Positions 29,838-57,353 of a stretch of 64,000 bases of DNA are shown here, one piece after another. Every line of letters begins with the position of its first letter. The first letter of the stretch is position 1. The translations under genes were made by a program, and so were the position numbers. The notes under the pieces were generated by a model. It had not been told where the DNA came from. It saw nothing but the letters and a program-made list of their open reading frames with translations, and did no database searches. Source of the stretch: Adhaeribacter pallidiroseus (GTDB lineage: Bacteria; Bacteroidota; Bacteroidia; Cytophagales; Hymenobacteraceae); the NCBI RefSeq assembly GCF_003340495.1, contig NZ_QASA01000001.1:2356001-2420000 (forward strand), in the 5' to 3' direction.

Positions 29838-31058
29838 TCACCTCTTCACCTCCAGCAGATGCGGCAAAAACTGCGACAGGTTGGTGATGATTCCTTTTTC
29901 CCGGCGTAAACCAATGGCGCATCCTTCGCCAGCCCAGAATACACCAGCCTGGTAAAAATGACCTTGATCATCCTGGGGTAAATCTACCCAAGCCTGGTAC
30001 ACTACTTTTTGCTGGCCGTATTCTCCTTCTTTCTCTTCGATGATTTGTTTATCTACTACTTGCACGTTTTGTCCTTCCCGGCCGAAAAAAGGTTTGCGGA
30101 TGTACTTGCCTCGAATGGGTTCTAGAGACGTTTCGAGCAAAAGCGGATGGTGCGGATAAGCTTTCCAGAGCCAGGCCAAAAAGCCTTTGCTTTGCCAAAT
30201 TAAGGTATACGGCGGGTTGGCTACTACTACATTGCGGGTCAGCATTAAACTGGCTAAGTCTTCGGCCAGCTCGGGTTCTTCCCAGGCAATTTGCTCCCAG
30301 GGTAATAATTTAAAAATAAACGGAAATTCAAGCCACTCGTCTTTCCCCACTTCTCCCCATACGCCCCGTTCGGTTCCTTTGGTCGAAAAAGTTAATGCAT
30401 CAATCGGGAATAAATAAGCTTCAAACCCCGCCTCGCGGGAAGCCTGAGCCATTACTTCGCAATTGGTACGGTCTTCGGTACTTTCCCCGATATACGTTAC
30501 AACCAGATTAGGCGCCAGATCATTGTTTTGCGTACGCCAGGTGCTTAGCTGCTCCACTAAAGCTTCGTACAATCCGGAGGCTTGGGCCGCGTCGTTTTTA
30601 CCAGCGGCCGCTAAACTGGCCCATTGCACCACCGCCGTTTCCGGGATAGAAGTAGCCGTATCGGCGTTAAATTCCAAAAGTTTGGGTCCTTGTGCAGTTT
30701 GTACCAAGTCGAAACGCCCGTAAATATGCCAATGGCGATCATCGTTCCAGGAAAGCCGGATAATGGGCCACAAGTTTTCGGGAATATCCAGTACCCGTAA
30801 AAATGCATCGGGCAAGTTCTCCGGTACGGCAGCCACCATCATATCATAAAGCTGCGTAGCGGCGTTTAATAATCCATCAGCTATTTTTTCGGGTAAAAGA
30901 ACTGCCTCCCCAGGTAAATAATTGGCGCAGCCTTCTTCGGTTATCCAGGTCCAGCCTAAGCCTTGTAAAACCGCATTCACATTTCCCTGGTGCGTAATTA
31001 CCCGAACAGATTTATCTGCTGCGCCATCATACGAAGATTCGGAAAGAAAATTTGCCAA
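29838..31058 (-). CDS. Glutathionylspermidine-synthase-like ATP-grasp protein (YgiC-like)
   Basis: The 406-residue protein carries the circularly permuted ATP-grasp fold of the C-terminal synthetase domain of glutathionylspermidine synthase. Visible motifs are GRFDLV and KLLEFNADTATS (about 114-136; Mg and carboxylate site), and RGKYIRKPFFGREGQNV (316-332; phosphate-binding Lys/Arg and Gly loop). No CHAP amidase domain is fused. E. coli YgiC has the same layout, and as there a Ser/Gly-rich small protein is encoded next to it, here upstream on the same strand. The substrates of YgiC-type enzymes are not established. Confidence 0.85.
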   Translation of the reverse strand: MANFLSESSYDGAADKSVRVITHQGNVNAVLQGLGWTWITEEGCANYLPGEAVLLPEKIADGLLNAATQLYDMMVAAVPENLPDAFLRVLDIPENLWPIIRLSWNDDRHWHIYGRFDLVQTAQGPKLLEFNADTATSIPETAVVQWASLAAAGKNDAAQASGLYEALVEQLSTWRTQNNDLAPNLVVTYIGESTEDRTNCEVMAQASREAGFEAYLFPIDALTFSTKGTERGVWGEVGKDEWLEFPFIFKLLPWEQIAWEEPELAEDLASLMLTRNVVVANPPYTLIWQSKGFLAWLWKAYPHHPLLLETSLEPIRGKYIRKPFFGREGQNVQVVDKQIIEEKEGEYGQQKVVYQAWVDLPQDDQGHFYQAGVFWAGEGCAIGLRREKGIITNLSQFLPHLLEVKR

Positions 31059-43155: not shown

Positions 43156-44120
43156 TTAAGTTGCCAGAGGTTCTGGTTGGTTCAGAATAGCCTCCGTTGC
43201 CGATTCAAGAATACGAAAAGCGTTTTTGGCCATGGTATTTTTAATATCCAGCATGGGGTTAATTTCTACCATTTCAAAACAACATACTTTCGGGCTCCTA
43301 CATAAGGTATAACACAAATCCTGCGCTTGGGTTACGGTGAGTCCAATAGCCACCGGGGTGCCCGTGCCCCGCGAAAATTTAGGATCCAGGCTATCTACAT
43401 CAAAGGATACGTAAATTAGATCGCATTCTTTTAAACGCTCCAGTACCTCCTGCCCTACTTGTTGCGGGCCTTTTTCATTAAACTCCTGGTACTTGTAATT
43501 TTTGATGCTATTTTGGCGCATTAACGTATTTTCCGGTTCTTCTGTGGATCGAACCATCACATAGACCAAGTGTTCCGGCTTAAGTTTAGGACCCGGCCTG
43601 CCGATTTTTTTAAGGCATTCCAGAAAAACAAGGTTTCGGGTTCCGGATTATTTACCTGGCAGCAGAGATTATCTTCGTTTAACGCGATACCTAAAGGCAT
43701 ACCGTGCATATTACCAGATGGCGTGGTATACGGTGAATGACAATCGGCGTGCGCATCTATCCAAACTACGCCTAACGTCTTATCTGGATTAGCCGCCTTA
43801 ATTCCCGCAATAGTACCCGCCGCGTTGGAATGATCGCCGGCTAAAACCAACGGAAACATGCCTTGCTCCATGGTTTGATGAACCATAGAGGCAATACTTT
43901 TTTGAACCGTTAAAACCGAATCGATGTATTTGGCATAGGGAAATAAATTGCGGTCGAAAAGTACATAATTTAAGTTAGCCACTTCGGTAGAATTGAAACG
44001 CTTAAAGTAATCAGATTGTTTATTCAAGCAGGCTACTTTCAGGGCATCAATGCCCATACTCGCCCCGCGAGTACCGGCTCCGAGCTCTGATCGTACCTCA
44101 ATGAGTTTAATGTTTTTCAT
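43156..44120 (-). pseudogene. Arginase/agmatinase-family enzyme, -1 frame break
   Basis: Two frames join into a full ureohydrolase. The first (44120-43557) has GDHS, WIDAHADCH and NMHGMPLG; the second (to 43156) has VSFDVDSLDPKFSRGTGTP and EINPMLD. All Mn-ligand motifs are thus present. The zero frame runs into TGA at 43557-43559. The junction is at A AAA AAA (43611-43605), an X XXY YYZ heptamer in phase; a -1 slip gives KKIGRPGPKLKPEHLVYV and a complete protein. A lost A in the A7 run or a sequencing error explains it equally well. It is divergent from an arginine-decarboxylase-like gene, so arginase and agmatinase are both possible. Confidence 0.8.
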
Positions 44121-44208: not shown

Positions 44209-45609
44209 ATGGACAAATACATAGATTTAATAAACCAAACATTCGATTTCCCCACCGAAGAATTTCACGTAGAAAACGATCAAATGATTTTTAACGGCAT
44301 TCCGCTGCTCGAAATCATTAAAGAATACGGAACGCCGCTTAAATTGACTTATTTACCTAAAATCAGTTCGCAGATTCAGAAAGCCAAAAAGCTGTTCCGG
44401 GAATCTATTGAAAAACTGGATTACAAAGGTACGTACACCTATTGCTACTGTACCAAGTCGTCGCATTTTTCTTTTGTGCTGGAAGAAGGCCTGAAAAATG
44501 ATATCCATATTGAAACGTCGTCGTCGTACGATATTCCGATTATCCGGGCTTTGTACGAAAAAGGAAAACTCACCAAAGACCGTTACGTGATTTGCAACGG
44601 TTTTAAACGTGAACTGTACAAAAGCTACATCGCCGACTTAATTAACGACGGTTTTTACAATGTTACGCCAATCTTGGACAATTTGTCGGAGATTGATTAT
44701 TACAAAGAGCACGTGAACGAAAAATGCCGGTTAGGCATTCGGGTAGCTTCGGACGAAGAACCAAAATTTGAATTTTATACTTCGCGCTTAGGTATCCGGT
44801 ATAACGATGTGGTAGATTTGTATTTAAATCAAATTAAGGACGATCCGAAGTTTGAACTGAAAATGCTCCATTATTTTATTAACAGCGGCATTAAAGACAC
44901 TTCGTATTACTGGTCGGAGTTAAGCCGGTTCGTACACAAGTACTGCGAATTAAAAAAAGTTTGTCCCGAACTGGATAGCATTGATATTGGCGGTGGTTTC
45001 CCGATTAAAACGTCGATCCAATCGGAGTACAATTACCGCTACATGGTAGAAGAAATTTTGCGTACTATTCAGCGGATTTGCCAGGCCGAAGGGGTGCCCG
45101 AACCTAACATTTTTACCGAGTTTGGTATTTTTACGGTAGGCGAAAGCGGCGCTAATATTTATTCGATTCTGGATTTAAAACTACAGAACGATAAAGAATT
45201 ATGGTACATGATTGACGGCTCGTTTATTACCAATTTGCCGGATGCGTGGGCATTAAGTCAGCGCTATATCTTATTAGCTATTAACCACTTAAATAAAGGC
45301 TACCGACGGGTGCAAATTGGCGGCTTAACCTGCGACAGCCAGGATTATTATAATTCCGAGACGCATTCGTTCCAGGTTTTTTTACCCACTATTGCCTCTG
45401 ATGAGAAAGAACCGTTGTATATTGGCTTTTTTCATACCGGCGCGTACCAGGAATCGTTGAGCGGCTACGGCGGCATTAAGCATTGTTTGATTCCGGCACC
45501 GCGTCATGTAATCATCGACCGGGACGAGAATGGACATTTAAAGACCCGGATGTTTGCGGATGAACAGGACAGCGATTCGATGTTAAAAATATTGGGCTAC
45601 AAGCAATAG
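44209..45609 (+). CDS. Arginine-decarboxylase-like PLP enzyme (fold type III)
   Basis: A 466-residue Orn/DAP/Arg decarboxylase-2 family enzyme. The PLP Lys is probably K83 in YCYCTKSSH, the Gly-rich phosphate-binding motif is SIDIGGGFPI near residue 263, and the late CDSQDYY near 385 matches the conserved C-D-S/G-x-D motif of the active site at the dimer interface. It is shorter than the biosynthetic SpeA (about 630 residues). The arginine preference is inferred from family annotation habits and from the divergent arginase-family gene 88 bases away; other diamino acids are not excluded. Confidence 0.8.
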   Translation: MDKYIDLINQTFDFPTEEFHVENDQMIFNGIPLLEIIKEYGTPLKLTYLPKISSQIQKAKKLFRESIEKLDYKGTYTYCYCTKSSHFSFVLEEGLKNDIHIETSSSYDIPIIRALYEKGKLTKDRYVICNGFKRELYKSYIADLINDGFYNVTPILDNLSEIDYYKEHVNEKCRLGIRVASDEEPKFEFYTSRLGIRYNDVVDLYLNQIKDDPKFELKMLHYFINSGIKDTSYYWSELSRFVHKYCELKKVCPELDSIDIGGGFPIKTSIQSEYNYRYMVEEILRTIQRICQAEGVPEPNIFTEFGIFTVGESGANIYSILDLKLQNDKELWYMIDGSFITNLPDAWALSQRYILLAINHLNKGYRRVQIGGLTCDSQDYYNSETHSFQVFLPTIASDEKEPLYIGFFHTGAYQESLSGYGGIKHCLIPAPRHVIIDRDENGHLKTRMFADEQDSDSMLKILGYKQ

Positions 45610-50943: not shown

Positions 50944-51756
50944 TTAGTTTTGGAAGGCCCAACACAAGAAATCCGGCATTATTTTACTCCAGGTAGCCAG
51001 GTCGTGCCGGCCGCCCAGGAGTTCTACGTACTTCACTTCTTTATTTTTCTCGTATCCTTTGCGGTAGAGCTCAGCAATCAAACTAGTGGTATCATCAATA
51101 GAATCAATGATCCCGTTGTTATTCCGGTCTGATTTTTCGTCCTGGGTACCAGCCTGAAACCAAAATTTTAAGTTAGGTTTTGTGTTAGCCTTTTTAATAA
51201 TCTTGTGCGCAATGCGGTACTTATCGGGTTGGATTTCGGTATAATCTTTACTGCGCCACCAAAATGAGCCGGAAAAAGCGCCTATTCTTGTAAAAATAGC
51301 GGCTTCGTGCCAGGCAATATCCAAGGCCGATAAAGCGCCCAACGAAAATCCGGCTACGGTATAACTGGTAAAATCGGAACGCTTGGTTTGTGCATGAATA
51401 AAGGGTAATAACTCCTGAACAATAAACTGGCGGTAATTATAGGCGGCACTGCCGCGACCTTTAAAGTCAGGCTGACCCGAAATACCATATTCCTGGAGCC
51501 GATTTCCAGCCGATATACCTATAGTAAGAACCGGCTGAATATTTTTTTTCTGGTAAACCCGGGATAGAATTTGATCGAATTGCATGGTGGTCAAATCTTG
51601 TCCATCATTTAGTAACAATAAATGTAGCCGGTCGGTGGTATTAGAAAAAGCTGGCAGGTACATCTCTCCGGTAACTTCCCGATTTAAATAAACTGATGAA
51701 ATGGCCCATTTTTCTACCCGAATGCGCACGTCGGTTTTGGTATAATCTAAAAACAT
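50944..51756 (-). CDS. Alpha/beta-hydrolase (esterase family) with Ca-loop-like motif
   Basis: A 270-residue putative esterase (esterase D/Fes-like fold) without a signal peptide. The nucleophile elbow is GFSLG (Ser138), the catalytic His is probably H251 in GGRHDLATW, and the acid lies near 206-221. That stretch, DRNNNGIIDSIDD (210-222), has the spacing D-x-N-x-N-G-x-x-D-x-x-D of an EF-hand or dockerin Ca-binding loop. The gene is divergent (159 bases) from a second hydrolase that starts the ligase group, so the two may share a control region. Substrate unknown. Confidence 0.85.
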   Translation of the reverse strand: MFLDYTKTDVRIRVEKWAISSVYLNREVTGEMYLPAFSNTTDRLHLLLLNDGQDLTTMQFDQILSRVYQKKNIQPVLTIGISAGNRLQEYGISGQPDFKGRGSAAYNYRQFIVQELLPFIHAQTKRSDFTSYTVAGFSLGALSALDIAWHEAAIFTRIGAFSGSFWWRSKDYTEIQPDKYRIAHKIIKKANTKPNLKFWFQAGTQDEKSDRNNNGIIDSIDDTTSLIAELYRKGYEKNKEVKYVELLGGRHDLATWSKIMPDFLCWAFQN

Positions 51757-51915
51757 TATTTAATTCCGGTAATTTATAGAAAGACAATATTAACTAAATA
51801 TAGATTAATAAGTATAAGGAAATTGTACTTTATCCTTTACTGGCAGATTAGGCTAAAACAATCCTAATCGATTATTAAACCATTACTTTAACCTGCTACC
51901 AGCAAAATTTACGCC

Positions 51916-52620
51916 ATGAACGAACAATATCACAAATGGTATTCGCAGCAGCTTCACGCGGACATAGAAATGTTAGTTTTTGGTGACCAGGGCTACCCGA
52001 TCATTCTATTTCCAACTTCTAAAGGCCGTTATTACGAAAATAAAGATTTTAAGCTGATAGAAAGTGCCGCCTGGTTTCTGGACCAAGGATTAGTGAAAAT
52101 TTATTGCATTGATTCCGTTGACGCCAATAGTTGGTACAACAAAGAAGTACACCCAGCGGAGCGGGTACAAAACCACATCCGGTACGACCATATGCTTTAC
52201 CACGAACTGGTGCCGCGGGCACTGTACGAAACCGGAAAAGGAAAAGTGTGTGTAGCTGGTTGTAGTTTTGGGGGCTATCATGCCGCCAATTTTGCTTTTA
52301 AACACCCGGATCAGGCGAGCCATTTATACAGTATGAGCGGCGCTTTTGACATTCGGGACCAATTGGATGGCTTTTACAACGATGAGGTGTATTACAATAA
52401 CCCGGTCGATTTTATATCCAACAGCTCCGATCCGGCCATTTGGCAGCTTAAAATTATTTTGGGAACTTCCGAATACGATATCTGCAAAGATGCCAACCTG
52501 AATTTAAGTAGCATCTTATCCCGGAAAAATATTCCGCATTGGTTAGATATCCGGCCCAATGCCGTGCACGACTGGCCAGTTTGGCGCGAGATGTTTCCGC
52601 ATTACTTATCCTTGATCTGA
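51916..52620 (+). CDS. Alpha/beta-hydrolase, esterase-like
   Basis: A 234-residue cytoplasmic protein of the putative esterase family. The nucleophile elbow is GCSFGG (Ser117), an acid is likely in GTSEYDIC (near 190) and the His in AVHDWPVW (near 220). It lies 17 bases before an ATP-grasp gene, so the two are almost certainly co-transcribed and probably work on the same compound. It differs from the divergent hydrolase in sequence and lacks the Ca-loop motif. Confidence 0.85.
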   Translation: MNEQYHKWYSQQLHADIEMLVFGDQGYPIILFPTSKGRYYENKDFKLIESAAWFLDQGLVKIYCIDSVDANSWYNKEVHPAERVQNHIRYDHMLYHELVPRALYETGKGKVCVAGCSFGGYHAANFAFKHPDQASHLYSMSGAFDIRDQLDGFYNDEVYYNNPVDFISNSSDPAIWQLKIILGTSEYDICKDANLNLSSILSRKNIPHWLDIRPNAVHDWPVWREMFPHYLSLI

Positions 52621-52637
52621 AATTTAAAAAAACTACT

Positions 52638-53651
52638 ATGAAAAAAATAGGAATTCTTTTTGGGCAGGAAAACACTTTTCCGCAGGCTTTTGTCGACCGC
52701 ATTAATAAAAAAGCAGTAAAAAACATTTCCGCCGAATTTGTTTTGATTGATAAAGTTATTCAAGGAGAAGCTTCGGGGTACGATGTGATTGTGGACCGGA
52801 TTTCGCAGGATGTACCATTTTACCGGGCCATGCTTAAAAATGCGGCCATGTCGGGCACGGCGGTAATTAATAACCCGTTTTGGTGGAGCGCTGACGAAAA
52901 GTTTTTTAATAATGCCTTGGCCGTGAAAATTGGGGTGCCGGTTCCCAAAACGGTACTGTTGCCGTCGCGCGACATGCCCGACAGTACCACCGGTAATTCT
53001 TTTCGGAATCTGGAGTATCCGCTGGACTGGGAAGGCATTTTTAATTACGTGGGCTTTCCGGCGTATATGAAGCCGTTCGATGGCGGCGGTTGGCGCGACG
53101 TGTACAAGCTGCACGATCCGGAAGACTTTTTCGATAAATTTAATCAAACCCGACAACTAGTAATGATGCTGCAGGAAGAAATTATCTTCGAAGATTATTT
53201 CCGGTGTTATTGCGTGGGCGGCCAGCACGTGCGCATTATGCAGTACGAACCCCGCAATCCGCACCATTTGCGCTACGAGCACGGCAAAGCGCCGGCTTCT
53301 AAAAAAATACTTACCCAGGTAAAAGACTACGTAATTAAGTTAAACCAATACTTGGGGTACGACATGAACACGGTAGAGTTTGCCATTCGCGAAGGCGTTC
53401 CGTATGCCATAGATTTTTGCAATCCGGCGCCGGATGCTGATTTAAACAGCGTAGGCGAAGAAAACTTTGAGTGGATCGTAGAGACTATGGCCACTTACGC
53501 CATTAACCGGGCCAAAGTACACCAACCTAACCGCGATAACTTAACCTGGGGACAATTTGTAAAATCGGGTGCGGCTAAAACCGATTTAATCTCTAACTCC
53601 ACGGCTGCCGATGCACCGACTAAAACTACCCTAAAGCCAAAAGCTTCCTAA
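52638..53651 (+). CDS. ATP-grasp ligase, RimK-like
   Basis: A 337-residue protein of the ATP-grasp superfamily, which joins a carboxylate to an amine through an acyl phosphate. Visible features are an N-terminal Rossmann-like part (KKIGILFGQEN), a central domain with YMKPFDGGGWRDV (phosphate-binding Lys and Gly loop), LQEEIIFEDYFRCYCVGG, and the metal site EFAIREGVPYAIDFCNPAPD near residues 270-290 (E and N ligands). The last 35 residues are Thr/Lys-rich and probably disordered. An upstream extension to 52539 only overlaps the previous gene; ATG 52638 is the start. Confidence 0.85.
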   Translation: MKKIGILFGQENTFPQAFVDRINKKAVKNISAEFVLIDKVIQGEASGYDVIVDRISQDVPFYRAMLKNAAMSGTAVINNPFWWSADEKFFNNALAVKIGVPVPKTVLLPSRDMPDSTTGNSFRNLEYPLDWEGIFNYVGFPAYMKPFDGGGWRDVYKLHDPEDFFDKFNQTRQLVMMLQEEIIFEDYFRCYCVGGQHVRIMQYEPRNPHHLRYEHGKAPASKKILTQVKDYVIKLNQYLGYDMNTVEFAIREGVPYAIDFCNPAPDADLNSVGEENFEWIVETMATYAINRAKVHQPNRDNLTWGQFVKSGAAKTDLISNSTAADAPTKTTLKPKAS

Positions 53652-54007
53652 ATTTTTTTAAAATGTAACCTTCATTTAAAACGATTTCCTTTAGAGCATT
53701 TAGGATTTACATTTCTGATACTCCATTATAAAATTTTTCAAATTTAAATGCTTTTCGGATTATTAAAACCCATGCACAAGGCTTGTCAGCTACGGTATTT
53801 TTTTGTTTTTCTTTTAGACAAAGTCTTAGGGCGTAATCTTTCGAAAACGAGCTATTTTGAACTAGGAAGCCGCAATAAATCTACCCAAATTAATTTTGAA
53901 TTAAATTAATAAATTAATAGATGAATTTAGTAACGGCTTTTTAGTAATTGAACAACGAACAACTATTAACCAAAAACTAATAACCAACCATTTACATCAC
54001 CAAACTC
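53652..54007. other. 356-base gap inside the ligase group
   Basis: AT-rich gap with a repeat A relative at 53949-53989 (GAACAACGAACAAC, ACTAATAACCAACC). No promoter or terminator was recognised, so it is unclear whether the genes on either side share a transcript. Confidence 0.5.
53949..53989 (+). repeat. Repeat A short copy
   Basis: Three or four units of the AACGAACAACTA type in tandem, just before the carboxylate-amine ligase gene. Confidence 0.6.
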
Positions 54008-55111
54008 ATGAATAAATTCACCTTAGGCGTAGAAGAAGAGTTTATGGTTATTGATCCCGTTACACGGGAGCTTATTTCGCACGAACAAAAAATTGTAGAA
54101 GCCGCCCAGCGCGTGCACGAAGACCAGGTAAAAGCCGAAATGCACCAAGCCGTAGTGGAAGTGGGCACCAGTATTTGCCAGAACACCGCCGAAGCACGCA
54201 CCGAAGTTACTAAACTACGAAGAACCGTAGCTACTTTGGCTGGCGAGTTAGGCTTCCGGATTGGGGCAGCGGGCACCCACCCTTTCTCGCATTGGCAACA
54301 CCAACTCATCACGGACCACCCCCGGTACGCCGAGATTGTGGATGAGTTGCAAGAAGCCGCCCGTTCCAATTTAATATTTGGCTTACACGTGCACGTTGGT
54401 TTTCAGTCGCGCGAAATGGCCATTCATATTGCCAACCAGGTGCGGTATTTTTTACCCCATATTTATGCCTTATCTACCAATTCGCCTTTCTGGGAAGGCC
54501 GCAATACGGGTTATAAATCTTTCCGGACTAAAGTTTTCGATAAGTTTCCCCGGACGGGCATTCCGGATTACTTCCAGAGTGTAGAAGAATACGATAGTTA
54601 CATTAAGCTGCTGGTTAAAACCAATTGTATCGATAACGCTAAAAAAATCTGGTGGGACGTGCGGGTGCATCCTTTCTTCGAAACTATCGAATTCCGGATT
54701 TGCGATTGCCCCATGTTGGTAGATGAAACCATGGCTTTTACCGCTCTCTTTCAGGCCCTTTGCGCCAAACTCTACAAAATCCGGCAACAAAACATGAAAT
54801 TTATTACCTATAACCGGGCGTTAATTAACGAAAATAAATGGCGCGCGGCCCGCTACGGCATCGACGGCAAACTCATTGACTTTGGCAAAGAAATGGAAGT
54901 AAACACCCGGTCGTTGATCCTGGAATTACTCGATTTTGTAGACGATGTAGTAGACGAACTGGGCAGTCGGGACGAGATTAACTACGTGCATAAAATTATG
55001 GAACACGGCACCGGGGCCGATCGGCAGTTACAAGTTTATCATAAGAACCAAAGTTTAACCGATGTGGTTGATTATATTACGTCGCAAACCTTAAAAGGCG
55101 TGGATGTATAG
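54008..55111 (+). CDS. Carboxylate-amine ligase, GCS2/YbdK family
   Basis: A 367-residue member of the glutamate-cysteine ligase 2 family. GVEEEFMVID (residues 7-16) holds the Glu triad that binds Mg-ATP, GTHPFSHW (near 95), FGLHVHVGF (near 124) and DVRVHPFFETIEFRICD (near 218) complete the active site. YbdK in E. coli has weak gamma-glutamylcysteine synthetase activity; the native reaction of most members is unknown. In this group the enzyme could join Glu or another carboxylate to an amine. Confidence 0.92.
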   Translation: MNKFTLGVEEEFMVIDPVTRELISHEQKIVEAAQRVHEDQVKAEMHQAVVEVGTSICQNTAEARTEVTKLRRTVATLAGELGFRIGAAGTHPFSHWQHQLITDHPRYAEIVDELQEAARSNLIFGLHVHVGFQSREMAIHIANQVRYFLPHIYALSTNSPFWEGRNTGYKSFRTKVFDKFPRTGIPDYFQSVEEYDSYIKLLVKTNCIDNAKKIWWDVRVHPFFETIEFRICDCPMLVDETMAFTALFQALCAKLYKIRQQNMKFITYNRALINENKWRAARYGIDGKLIDFGKEMEVNTRSLILELLDFVDDVVDELGSRDEINYVHKIMEHGTGADRQLQVYHKNQSLTDVVDYITSQTLKGVDV

Positions 55112-55120
55112 TAATTTAAT

Positions 55121-55151
55121 TAGTTGTTCGTTATTTGTTGCTGGTTGTTAG
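55121..55151 (-). repeat. Repeat A short copy, opposite orientation
   Basis: AGTTGTTCGTTATTTG and GGTTGTTAG are the reverse complement of repeat A units, directly after the carboxylate-amine ligase gene, so copies flank this gene on both sides in opposite orientation. Confidence 0.6.
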
Positions 55152-55332
55152 AGCCATAAATTATCAGTAATAAATAGCTTAACTTTTTAACATAATAACC
55201 ACGAATAATTTGAGGAGCTTACCTTTTTTGAATAGGCTTTTACTGCCTTAACTTTGGTTTACTAATTGGGAAGGGTGATAAAAAAAAATTAAAATTTTAA
55301 CCTTTTTTAAGCTTCTAGCTTAAATATTATCA

Positions 55333-56169
55333 TTGAAAATAGTGTCTGTAAAAATTGCCATTTTAGATCTGTATGCCGGTCATCCCAACCAAGGAATGCG
55401 CGGCATTCAGGATATATTATTACGTTTTAGGGAAGCCAACCAACTAAAATTAGATTACCAGATTTTTGATGTGCGGGCTAAAAACGAAATTCCAAATACG
55501 GAATTTGACATTTACATTTCCAGCGGTGGTCCTGGTAGCCCCTTAGAAAGCATCGGCTCGGAATGGGAAAATAATTATTTCACGCTGATTCATCAGTTAG
55601 AAGATATCAATCGTAACCCAGATCGTTTAGATAAAAAGTACGTATTTTTTATTTGCCATTCGTTTCAACTTATCTGCCGCCAGTACCAGTTAGGTAAAAT
55701 CACGAAAAGAAAATCAACTTCGTTCGGAATTTTTCCAATTAACCGTACTTCGGCCGGAAAATCCGAAAAGTTCTTTCAAGGTTTAGGCGATCCGTTTTAT
55801 GCCGTCGACTCCCGGGATTGGCAGGTAATTGAACCCGACGAGGAACAATTCTTAGCCATGGGCGCCAAAATTCTGGCCTTAGAAAAAGAACGCCCGCACG
55901 TTAGTTTAGAGCGCTGCCTGATGGCTATCCGGTTCAACACCTATTTTTTTGGTACTCAGTTTCATCCGGAAGCTGACCCGGTAGGTATGAAAAAGCATTT
56001 GCTCGACGAAGAAAAGAAAAACCAGATTATTCAGGCGCACGGCGCCGATAAATACGCCGATATGCTCCAATTTCTCGAAGATCCAAGAAAGCTGGAGAAG
56101 ACGCAATACCAAATTATACCGGCATTTTTAAACCAAGCATTACTCGCGCTGCAGGAGGCTTACTTATGA
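55333..56169 (+). CDS. Class I glutamine amidotransferase
   Basis: A 278-residue GATase1 domain protein. The nucleophile is C108 in FFICHSFQL, with H211 and E213 in GTQFHPEAD completing the triad; SSGGPGSP near 63-70 is the oxyanion loop. It would hydrolyse glutamine and hand over ammonia. The start is non-ATG: TTG at 55333 or GTG at 55342. Its stop TGA overlaps the ATG of the next gene (ATGA at 56166-56169), so the partner synthetase is very likely the downstream ATP-grasp-like protein. It is not fused to GMP or CTP synthase domains. Confidence 0.88.
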   Translation: MKIVSVKIAILDLYAGHPNQGMRGIQDILLRFREANQLKLDYQIFDVRAKNEIPNTEFDIYISSGGPGSPLESIGSEWENNYFTLIHQLEDINRNPDRLDKKYVFFICHSFQLICRQYQLGKITKRKSTSFGIFPINRTSAGKSEKFFQGLGDPFYAVDSRDWQVIEPDEEQFLAMGAKILALEKERPHVSLERCLMAIRFNTYFFGTQFHPEADPVGMKKHLLDEEKKNQIIQAHGADKYADMLQFLEDPRKLEKTQYQIIPAFLNQALLALQEAYL

Positions 56170-57353
56170 TTAAAGAAACCCGCCAAGCTTATAACACGGC
56201 TTTTACCGAACAGGCTTATCACCACTTTCTAACGGATTTAAATAAAAACCTGCAACGCAATATTGAATTTAGAGTAGCCGAAACCCCGGTGTTTTTAAGC
56301 CCGGAATTTAAAAAAAAGTTAATTAGGGCGGGAGAAGAATTAGTAACTACCATTAAACAAGCGCATTTTAAACAACTCACCGAGAAAGCCATTCCGGAAG
56401 ATTGGCGGGTAGCCCACGAAAAAGGTCATCCGCATTTCCTTACTTTTGATTTTGCCGTTTGCCGCGACGATCAAGGCGAGTTAACTCCTAAATTAATTGA
56501 GCTGCAAGGTTTTCCCTCGCTGTATGCTTTTCAGGCGGAGTTGGCTGCTTCCTATCAGAAGCACTTTCCGGTAAGCCAAGGGTTTACGCCGTACTTTAAT
56601 CACCTGGATTTTGATAGCTATATTACATTGCTACGCCAAACCATTATTGGAAATAGCTTGCCCGAAGAAGTAATTCTTTTGGATATTAACGCTCAGGAAC
56701 AAAAAACGGCCGTAGATTTTTACTTAACCGCTCAATATTTAGGTCTGGCCATTGTGGCCTTACACGAGCTTAAGCAGAAAGGAAATAACTTTTACTACGA
56801 ACGGGATGGACAAGAACACCTAGTAAAGAAGATTTATAACCGATTAATTTTTGACGAAGTAACGGACAAAAACGCCGCTTTTGCGAAGGTGCCCGATTTA
56901 CTAACTGCCGAAACCATAGAATGGGTAACGCACCCGAATTGGTTTTATCGCATCAGCAAATACACCATGCCTTTTTTAGAAAGTGAGTTTGTGCCTCTGA
57001 CGTACTTTCTTTCGGAATTAAAAAATATACCGGCAAATATAGCAGATTACGTTTTAAAACCTTTGTTTTCCTTTGCGGGCCAAGGAGTTATTATTGATGT
57101 GTCCGAAGCAGATATAAACGCGATTGCAGATCCGGAAAACTGGATTTTACAAGAAAAAGTAAGCTACGAACCCGTTATTCAAACTTTGGATGGTTTAGTT
57201 AAATGCGAAATCCGGTTGATGTACTTATGGCCCGATCCTGATTTGGAACCAACCTTAGCTATTTCATTAGCCAGGCTAAGCCGCGGCAAAATGATTGGCG
57301 TACGCTACAACCAAGATTTTAATTGGGTAGGCGGCTCGGTTTGTCTGTTTTAA
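56166..57353 (+). CDS. Putative circularly permuted ATP-grasp ligase
   Basis: This 395-residue protein has no obvious named family. Two stretches mirror the YgiC/GspS-like protein encoded at 29838-31058: LTFDFAVCRDD with KLIELQGFPS (about 92-118) against GRFDLV with KLLEFNADTATS, and KPLFSFAGQGVII (298-310) against KPFFGREGQNVQV, each followed by an acidic and Gln-Glu region. I therefore infer a circularly permuted ATP-grasp fold. Coupling with the amidotransferase by a 4-base overlap suggests a glutamine-dependent amide-forming ligase. Confirmation needs structure-based comparison. Confidence 0.6.
   Translation: MIKETRQAYNTAFTEQAYHHFLTDLNKNLQRNIEFRVAETPVFLSPEFKKKLIRAGEELVTTIKQAHFKQLTEKAIPEDWRVAHEKGHPHFLTFDFAVCRDDQGELTPKLIELQGFPSLYAFQAELAASYQKHFPVSQGFTPYFNHLDFDSYITLLRQTIIGNSLPEEVILLDINAQEQKTAVDFYLTAQYLGLAIVALHELKQKGNNFYYERDGQEHLVKKIYNRLIFDEVTDKNAAFAKVPDLLTAETIEWVTHPNWFYRISKYTMPFLESEFVPLTYFLSELKNIPANIADYVLKPLFSFAGQGVIIDVSEADINAIADPENWILQEKVSYEPVIQTLDGLVKCEIRLMYLWPDPDLEPTLAISLARLSRGKMIGVRYNQDFNWVGGSVCLF

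What the first reader, a model, noticed from the sequence alone, without database searches (positions are those of the whole stretch)
50944..57353. Uncharacterised ligase/amidotransferase/hydrolase gene group
Within 6.4 kb lie two alpha/beta hydrolases (divergent), a RimK-like ATP-grasp ligase, a GCS2/YbdK carboxylate-amine ligase, a class I glutamine amidotransferase and a putative circularly permuted ATP-grasp ligase. These are separate bond-forming and bond-breaking activities with no known pathway that uses this set. Established: ATP-grasp and GCS2 enzymes join carboxylates to amines; GATase1 supplies ammonia. Inference: the group makes a peptide-like or amidated metabolite, with hydrolases trimming or activating it. 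None of the genes belongs to purine, pyrimidine, cyanophycin or glutathione operons by context.
Basis: partly seen in the sequence, partly recalled or inferred. Interest (0 to 1): 0.72.

Follow-up and report, generated by a model that had tools for sequence, protein, structure and literature searches.

The report
Phylum-wide two-ligase peptide pathway, product unknown
Six neighbouring genes in a Bacteroidota genome form a widely conserved enzyme set, built around two ATP-driven amide-bond-making enzymes, that probably makes a small peptide-like molecule not yet identified.

Summary
The six genes are real and form a unit. Of 80 named loci, 44 carry all six in the same order and orientation. In 296 sampled Bacteroidota genomes, the RimK-like ATP-grasp C occurs in 108; the second ATP-grasp F occurs in 92, and 89 of those also have C. 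In the 15 genomes with the amidotransferase-type E but no F, a different circularly permuted ATP-grasp ("f46") is present in all 15. So 104 of 108 C genomes have F or f46; the four others are the lowest-scoring unsplit C matches. The core therefore looks like an obligate pair of ligases. D (YbdK/GCS2 type) is a frequent partner. E was never found without F or f46 (0 of 70), but F occurs without E in 37 of 92. The F model resembles glutathionylspermidine synthases, eukaryotic glutathione synthetases, YgiC/YjfC and the E-64 ligase Cp1B; C resembles LysX/ArgX/RimK. Best reading: stepwise, ATP-dependent, non-ribosomal assembly of a small peptide-like (perhaps peptide-amine) metabolite, with logic like glutathione to glutathionylspermidine, and hydrolases that trim or recycle it. 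Product and substrates are not shown. I judge it a new variant of a known kind.

The parts
50944..51756 (-). A: alpha/beta hydrolase, Fes/IroE-type esterase, divergent from B
   Evidence: PF00756 1.4e-28; profile hits BES, IroE-like and enterochelin esterases in PDB; nucleophile motif in 17 of 17 aligned sequences
51757..51915 (.). A-B divergent intergenic region, probable shared control region
   Evidence: 159 bp; A-B spacing median 164 bp over 51 loci; function inferred only
51916..52620 (+). B: small alpha/beta hydrolase (GCSFG, HDW motifs)
   Evidence: PF00756 1.6e-6; motifs in 16 of 16 aligned sequences
52638..53651 (+). C: RimK/LysX-like ATP-grasp ligase, R2K-like; core
   Evidence: TIGR00768 7.5e-10, below cut-off; R2K_2 in 9 of 15 aligned sequences, not in the window's own; model matches LysX/ArgX, PsnB, RimK, Ddl
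54008..55111 (+). D: YbdK/GCS2-type carboxylate-amine ligase
   Evidence: PF04107 2.5e-63; PRK13515 544.7 bits over cut-off 371; profile hits YbdK 1r8g 9.5e-59
55333..56169 (+). E: class I glutamine-amidotransferase-type hydrolase (true start may be about 55348)
   Evidence: PF00117 6.1e-11; Cys103 and His206-Pro-Glu208 (numbered from 55348) invariant in 18 aligned sequences
56166..57353 (+). F: glutathionylspermidine-synthase/eukaryotic glutathione-synthetase-type ATP-grasp ligase; core, replaced by f46 in some lineages
   Evidence: model pLDDT 86.8; Foldseek 3n6x 2.3e-15, 1m0w, 7uk8/7uk6, 9cjn; f46 complementarity

Best explanation
A conserved Bacteroidota pathway for stepwise, ATP-dependent, non-ribosomal amide-bond formation. 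SHOWN BY SEQUENCE: the unit exists, is conserved, and its core is two ATP-grasp ligases, C (RimK/LysX-like) and F (glutathionylspermidine-synthase/eukaryotic-GS-type by fold, replaced by the CP_ATPgrasp_2-type protein f46 in some lineages), commonly with the GCS2-type ligase D and the GATase-fold enzyme E. INFERRED: each ligase activates a carboxylate as an acyl phosphate and joins it to an amine. D, when present, makes a gamma-glutamyl-like or other amino-acid amide; C adds a second building block; F (or f46) adds an amino acid or amine at the end. This is the same order of enzyme types as glutathione then glutathionylspermidine synthesis (GCS, ATP-grasp synthetase, Gss). E most likely acts as a thiol amidase/glutaminase on or beside the F step, and A and B cleave ester or amide bonds to trim, release or recycle the product.
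For: Conserved order in 44 of 80 loci. C has F or f46 in 104 of 108 genomes, Fisher p 2.5e-69, not phylogenetically corrected. F and f46 occur together in only 1 genome; f46 lies next to C in 15 of 15 genomes and next to E in 14 of 15. Members of six families (f1, f19, f23, f24, f26, f27) lack C, D, E and F together while other members have the set (in f27 without D). Predicted catalytic motifs are kept (with the invariant columns). F's fold group contains amide ligases, including Cp1B (epoxysuccinate + amino acid) and YgiC/YjfC, called peptidylpolyamine synthetases in PMC12568646. No conserved small ORF was seen in the spacers of 44 full loci and the window, so no ribosomal precursor.
Against: No substrate or product evidence. 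D is missing in 17 of 108 C genomes and E in 39 of 108, so the step order cannot be the same everywhere. Pfam does not place the window's F in any family over its cut-off, and its profile's link to YgiC by sequence is weak (E 0.13). Foldseek TM-scores for F against its fold group are moderate (0.45-0.64 normalised by query). No other gene family, hence no transporter or regulator, is a constant neighbour (at most 29 of 100 loci). Four genomes have F or f46 without C. Protein modification cannot be excluded.
Confidence: 0.55

Rival explanations
1. Protein-tagging system: C and F add amino acids or short peptides to a protein or side chain, and E, A and B remove them, like RimK on S6 or the CDC123/R2K proposals.
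For: C homologues show R2K_2/R2K_3 similarity and the C model matches RimK/LysX/PsnB; PMC4431377 proposes that R2K enzymes target proteins (passages read).
Against: No conserved small acceptor or precursor ORF in the spacers; F's closest folds are small-molecule/peptide ligases; the accompanying hydrolases match esterases, not proteases, among solved structures.
Confidence: 0.15
2. E and F form one glutamine-dependent amidotransferase: E releases ammonia and F amidates a carboxylate (carboxamide product).
For: E-F overlap by 4 bases in the window; adjacent in 40 of 55 genomes that hold both; in G235 and G292 C-D lie on one contig and E-F side by side on another; E never occurs without F or f46 (0 of 70); E keeps Cys and His-Pro-Glu.
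Against: 37 of 92 F genomes have no E at E<=1e-8, so F does not seem to need E; a distant GATase elsewhere was not excluded.
Confidence: 0.25
3. Catabolic amine pathway: D attaches gamma-glutamate to an incoming amine, later steps process it and E removes the glutamate (as recalled for Puu or aniline pathways).
For: A ligase that adds glutamate plus a GATase-fold hydrolase is a known logic for amine handling (recalled, not checked); D and E both present in 58 of 296 genomes.
Against: No other family, hence no oxidase or dehydrogenase, is a constant neighbour (at most 29 of 100 loci); D is absent in 12 of 70 E genomes; two extra ligases are unexplained.
Confidence: 0.12
4. No shared pathway: separate housekeeping genes kept together by chance synteny or shared ancestry.
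For: In other families the genes lie apart, in some cases next to genes such as obg, gltX and mnmE; relatedness inflates the Fisher values.
Against: They co-occur even when apart; F is replaced by f46 in 15 of 15 E-without-F genomes; joint absence in members of at least six families.
Confidence: 0.04

Closest known systems
Glutathione / glutathionylspermidine synthesis (GCS, glutathione synthetase, Gss/GspS; YgiC, YjfC)
   Same: Same kinds of enzymes: GCS2-family ligase, ATP-grasp synthetase, GSPS/eGS-type ATP-grasp; F model hits 3n6x, 2io7, 7uk8, 7uk6
   Different: D is YbdK-like rather than a true GCS; C is RimK/LysX/R2K-like rather than GshB; F has no amidase domain; E, A and B are extra; the own genome has no PF04262 match and D is its only GCS2 match
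NRPS-independent E-64 pathway (Cp1B + amide-bond synthetase), PMC12568646
   Same: F model matches Cp1B (9cjn, 8.7e-10), a pseudodipeptide-forming ATP-grasp enzyme
   Different: Fungal; second bond made by an ANL-family enzyme; no GCS2, GATase or RimK-like partner in the passages seen
R2K clade of ATP-grasp enzymes (CDC123, R2K.2, R2K.3), PMC4431377
   Same: R2K_2 matches 9 of 15 and R2K_3 4 of 15 aligned C sequences at E<=0.05; lysine K147 plus K/R155 in C
   Different: The window's own C has no Pfam hit; the neighbourhoods described in the passages seen (toxin loci, GNAT, ADP-ribosylglycohydrolase) are not these
Graspetide RiPP ligases (PsnB, MdnB)
   Same: C model matches PsnB 7drm
   Different: No conserved precursor ORF seen in the spacers
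Anbu-linked CP-ATP-grasp / Alpha-E system (recalled)
   Same: f46 is over the CP_ATPgrasp_2 cut-off
   Different: Alpha-E and NTN-hydrolase partners were not searched for as such; none is among the ten neighbours scanned

Membership tests
YbdK/PRK13515 carboxylate-amine ligase (D) | Score over curated family cut-off | tested here: met
   544.7 bits against cut-off 371
YbdK/PRK13515 carboxylate-amine ligase (D) | Carboxylate-amine ligase activity and substrate | not testable with these tools
   needs enzyme assay
RimK family alpha-L-glutamate ligase (C) | Score over TIGR00768 cut-off | tested here: not met
   38.6 bits against 143.4
ATP-grasp superfamily (C) | Fold and conserved ATP-grasp motifs | tested here: met
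   model hits LysX/ArgX/RimK (mean pLDDT 76.7); KP..GGGW and E[FM]A[IV] in 15 of 15
R2K clade (C) | Match to Pfam R2K models; two conserved lysines (Lys/Arg at the second, per PMC4431377) | tested here: inconclusive
   9 of 15 members match R2K_2 at E<=0.05, best 1.7e-4, the window's own protein not at all; K147 invariant, K/R155
Glutathionylspermidine synthase PF03738 (F) | Score over Pfam cut-off | tested here: not met
   only 2 of 19 aligned sequences match at E<=0.05, window protein none
Glutathionylspermidine synthase / eukaryotic GS fold (F) | Same three-dimensional fold | tested here: met
   Foldseek 3n6x 2.3e-15; all 35 matches with E<=0.001 are of this fold group; TM by query 0.45-0.64
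Class I GATase (E) | PF00117 match and Cys-His-Glu catalytic residues | tested here: met
   42.8 bits over cut-off 22.8; Cys103, His206, Glu208 invariant in 18
Class I GATase as ammonia donor (E) | Obligate synthase partner | tested here: inconclusive
   E never without F or f46 (0 of 70), but F without E in 37 of 92
Glutathione biosynthesis | True GshA in the genome | tested here: not met
   no PF04262 match; the only GCS2 match is D; a BshC match is present; two GSH-S_ATP matches elsewhere, best 75 bits, not followed
Graspetide RiPP | Precursor peptide gene beside the ligase | tested here: not met
   in 44 full loci and the window, no small ORF (20 aa or more, ATG start) in a spacer between A and F matched more than 3 other loci

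The most novel reading that the evidence does not exclude
A phylum-wide, undescribed cofactor-like or protective small peptide-amine of Bacteroidota, made by an obligate pair of ATP-grasp ligases, in bacteria like this one that carry a bacillithiol gene (BshC) and no GshA-family gene. It would be the functional counterpart of glutathionylspermidine/trypanothione built from different families.
Probability: 0.2. Interest if true: 0.82.

Novelty: new variant of a known kind. Interest (0 to 1): 0.58.

Why it matters
About a third of the sampled Bacteroidota genomes (104 of 296) carry this ligase pair, and named carriers include Pedobacter and Mucilaginibacter, genera that I recall as easily grown. 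I found no described product. If it makes a conserved small molecule, that molecule is probably part of the basic chemistry of a major bacterial phylum. The pair also gives a clear handle: two enzymes that are nearly always present together, one of which has been swapped for another ATP-grasp protein in some lineages.

Tried and rejected
Plasmid collection with C: no match. PADLOC: no hit for any of the six, so not a listed defence system. Ribosomal precursor in the spacers: not found; the only widely shared small ORF lies after F in Mucilaginibacter/Pedobacter-type loci and matches a FeoB-associated Cys-rich membrane protein; it is not in the window, and the own genome has only a weak match elsewhere (E 0.0033). 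Standard glutathione role: disfavoured, no PF04262 match in the own genome. F-f46 direct profile comparison: not significant (E 0.06, probability 0.9%); their kinship rests on weak Pfam matches and motif order by eye. VIA-align second look was not available. Promoter/terminator scan: no more hits than shuffles. PDB profile search with E: nothing at 0.001; at a limit of 10 the best was a homoserine O-succinyltransferase at 0.0014. Literature: 10 searches; I saw their listings (titles, abstract starts) and passages of four papers, and none described this gene set. The 2009 amidoligase survey by Iyer and co-workers, which I recall as covering such neighbourhoods, is not held and could already list it.

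I left out weaker and second-copy rows, including a few above the last row I kept. The four C genomes without F or f46 were kept in every count. Fisher values ignore relatedness and no tree was built. 'Not adjacent' includes genes on different contigs of fragmented assemblies. Gene A was not surveyed in the 296 genomes. Most unmatched genomes are listed without taxonomy, so the six families with all-or-none members are a minimum. Flanking genes are partly shared between Mucilaginibacter and Pedobacter loci (one family in 29 of 100 loci, another in 19), so local synteny explains part of the conservation there.
Full report
OBSERVATION. The six reading frames are present at the stated coordinates, with small corrections: C starts at ATG 52638, and E's start is uncertain (listed TTG 55333; homologues align from about 55348). 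Family scans give A = PF00756 esterase, B = weak PF00756/abhydrolase, D = GCS2 with a score over the PRK13515 cut-off, E = class I GATase, F = sub-threshold CP_ATPgrasp_2. C has no Pfam hit at 0.01 and scores under the RimK family cut-off.

CONSERVATION. In these 80, 44 loci have A(-) B(+) C(+) D(+) E(+) F(+) in that order, although several loci end at contig edges. Many Chitinophagaceae-type loci have only A, C and D next to each other. Over 100 loci (the 80 plus 20 fetched) my ORF families for C, A, D, E, B and F are found in 94, 72, 71, 60, 54 and 51; the next family is in 29 and the one after in 24. The flanks are thus less conserved than A-F, but the family in 29 loci and one in 19 are shared by Mucilaginibacter and Pedobacter loci. 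In the window's own order, 50 of 148 genomes have C at E<=0.001, one of them a short weak match.

CO-OCCURRENCE. In one phylum sample of 296 genomes, C is found in 108, F in 92, D in 103 and E in 70. C and D share 91 genomes, C and F 89, C and E 69. Of these, 57, 49 and 47 are adjacent on one strand within 6 kb, so 34, 40 and 22 co-occur without being scored as neighbours (contig breaks included). Regions fetched around 12 F and 8 D copies and around 20 C copies in such and other genomes show various neighbours, some of them housekeeping genes. In G235 and G292 C-D are on one contig and E-F together on another. Members of families f1, f19, f23, f24, f26 and f27 lack all four of C, D, E and F at the limits used while relatives have the set (in f27 the relatives have C, E and F but no D). 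Example from the listed rows: in genus g85 G285 and G356 have B-F, G168, G172, G203, G214 and G228 have none of C-F, and G296 has D, E, F only.

REPLACEMENT OF F. In L126, L129, L130 and L131 a 452-474 residue protein ("f46") sits at the place after C and, in three of them, before a called E (some C and E frames there were missed by my ORF picker and are placed). The member scanned (L126) is over the CP_ATPgrasp_2 cut-off. Searched over the same 296 genomes, f46 is in 17, one of them a weak partial match (G344). These include all 15 genomes that have E without F, and only one genome has both F and f46 (G280). Thus 104 of 108 C genomes have F or f46. The four others (G302, G423, G154, G231) are the lowest-scoring unsplit C matches, 343 bits or less; the split match of G409 is of similar score and has F. 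Four genomes have F or f46 without C (G344, G287, G358, G296). f46 lies beside C in 15 of 15 and beside E in 14 of 15 of those genomes. This replacement pattern is the strongest evidence that C and the second ATP-grasp act in one process. Direct F-f46 profile similarity is not significant; motif order (E-x-Q/N, Y-x-R, KP-x-G-x-G-V) is similar by eye.

ENZYMES. The F model (pLDDT 86.8) matches a putative glutathionylspermidine synthase 3n6x (E 2.3e-15), yeast and human glutathione synthetases, E. coli Gss, YgiC, YjfC and the fungal ligase Cp1B. In PMC12568646 (passages read) Cp1B joins epoxysuccinate to an amino acid with ADP formation, and YgiC and YjfC are called peptidylpolyamine synthetases, citing a 2023 paper of which I saw the title only. 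Residues R139, D141, E163 and N165 of Cp1B may correspond in part to invariant D95, E112 and Q114 of F (inference; no superposition done; F lacks the arginine by eye). The C model (pLDDT 76.7) matches LysX/ArgX, PsnB, Ddl and RimK. R2K_2 or R2K_3 match part of its homologues. D's profile hits YbdK 1r8g at 9.5e-59. A's profile hits siderophore-type and other esterases. Motif patterns of my own: in E ICH[SA][FY]Q 16 of 18 (the two misses have VCH; Cys and His are invariant) and TQFHPEAD 18 of 18; in B 16 of 16 for all three; in A 17 of 17 for the nucleophile and 15 of 17 for G[RTKA]?H (His251 itself is invariant); in F 19 of 19 for all four; in C 15 of 15 except FRCYC, 14 of 15; in D 14 of 14 for all four.

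MECHANISM. Inferred: D forms a gamma-glutamyl-type (or other) amide, C adds a unit, F or f46 adds a last amino acid or amine, E acts as a thiol amidase or as ammonia source, and A/B trim. Because F occurs without E in 37 of 92 genomes, whereas E never occurs without F or f46 (0 of 70), E looks like a helper of the second ligase, not a required subunit. The own genome has no PF04262 match, D is its only GCS2 match, and it has a BshC match, so this is probably not ordinary glutathione synthesis. Two matches to the GSH-S_ATP model exist elsewhere in the genome and were not followed.

NOVELTY. Ten literature searches found no description of this set in what their listings showed. PMC4431377 (passages and outline) discusses R2K enzymes and the general logic of linked peptide ligases but, in the passages seen, not this set; PMC8939145 (passages) concerns graspetides; PMC10948618 held only a reference. 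The 2009 amidoligase survey is not held, so priority cannot be claimed. I rate it a new variant of a known kind, multi-ligase non-ribosomal peptide synthesis.

Noticed in passing
L036:12586-12747 and 37 other Mucilaginibacter/Pedobacter-type loci, 60-636 bp after F: A roughly 50-residue FeoB-associated Cys-rich membrane protein follows F in 38 loci (three members checked by Pfam). It is not found beside F in the window, Pontibacter or Rufibacter. It may be a seventh member with a metal or redox hint, or just shared local synteny, since some other flanking genes are also shared by these genera.
   Followed up: partly
window 43156-44120 (minus): An arginase-family gene is split over two overlapping frames (each half matches a different part of PF00491), beside a PLP decarboxylase of the ornithine/arginine type at 44209-45609: a frameshifted copy or a sequence error.
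   Followed up: partly
window 29838-31058 (minus): A clear glutathionylspermidine-synthase-like gene (PF03738, 6.6e-88) lies 20 kb from the group, so the genome has an enzyme of that family apart from F.
   Followed up: no
L112, L113, L116, L119, L121; L132, L133, L135-L138: In one family (f43) C lies by an aromatic amino acid lyase (family f34; Pfam checked on L121), and F lies by an amidohydrolase-type gene in 6 of 12 fetched F loci (Pfam checked on L136): a possible hint to substrates.
   Followed up: partly
L141:5637-8240: One frame holds a sodium:solute symporter followed by F without a stop between them; fusion or lost stop.
   Followed up: no
L075:1332-2831: C carries a charged C-terminal extension of about 180 residues in a Saprospiraceae record, without a Pfam hit.
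   Followed up: no
L043 and L048, between E and F: A small ORF (looks like a GIY-YIG nuclease by eye) is inserted between E and F in two Mucilaginibacter loci.
   Followed up: no
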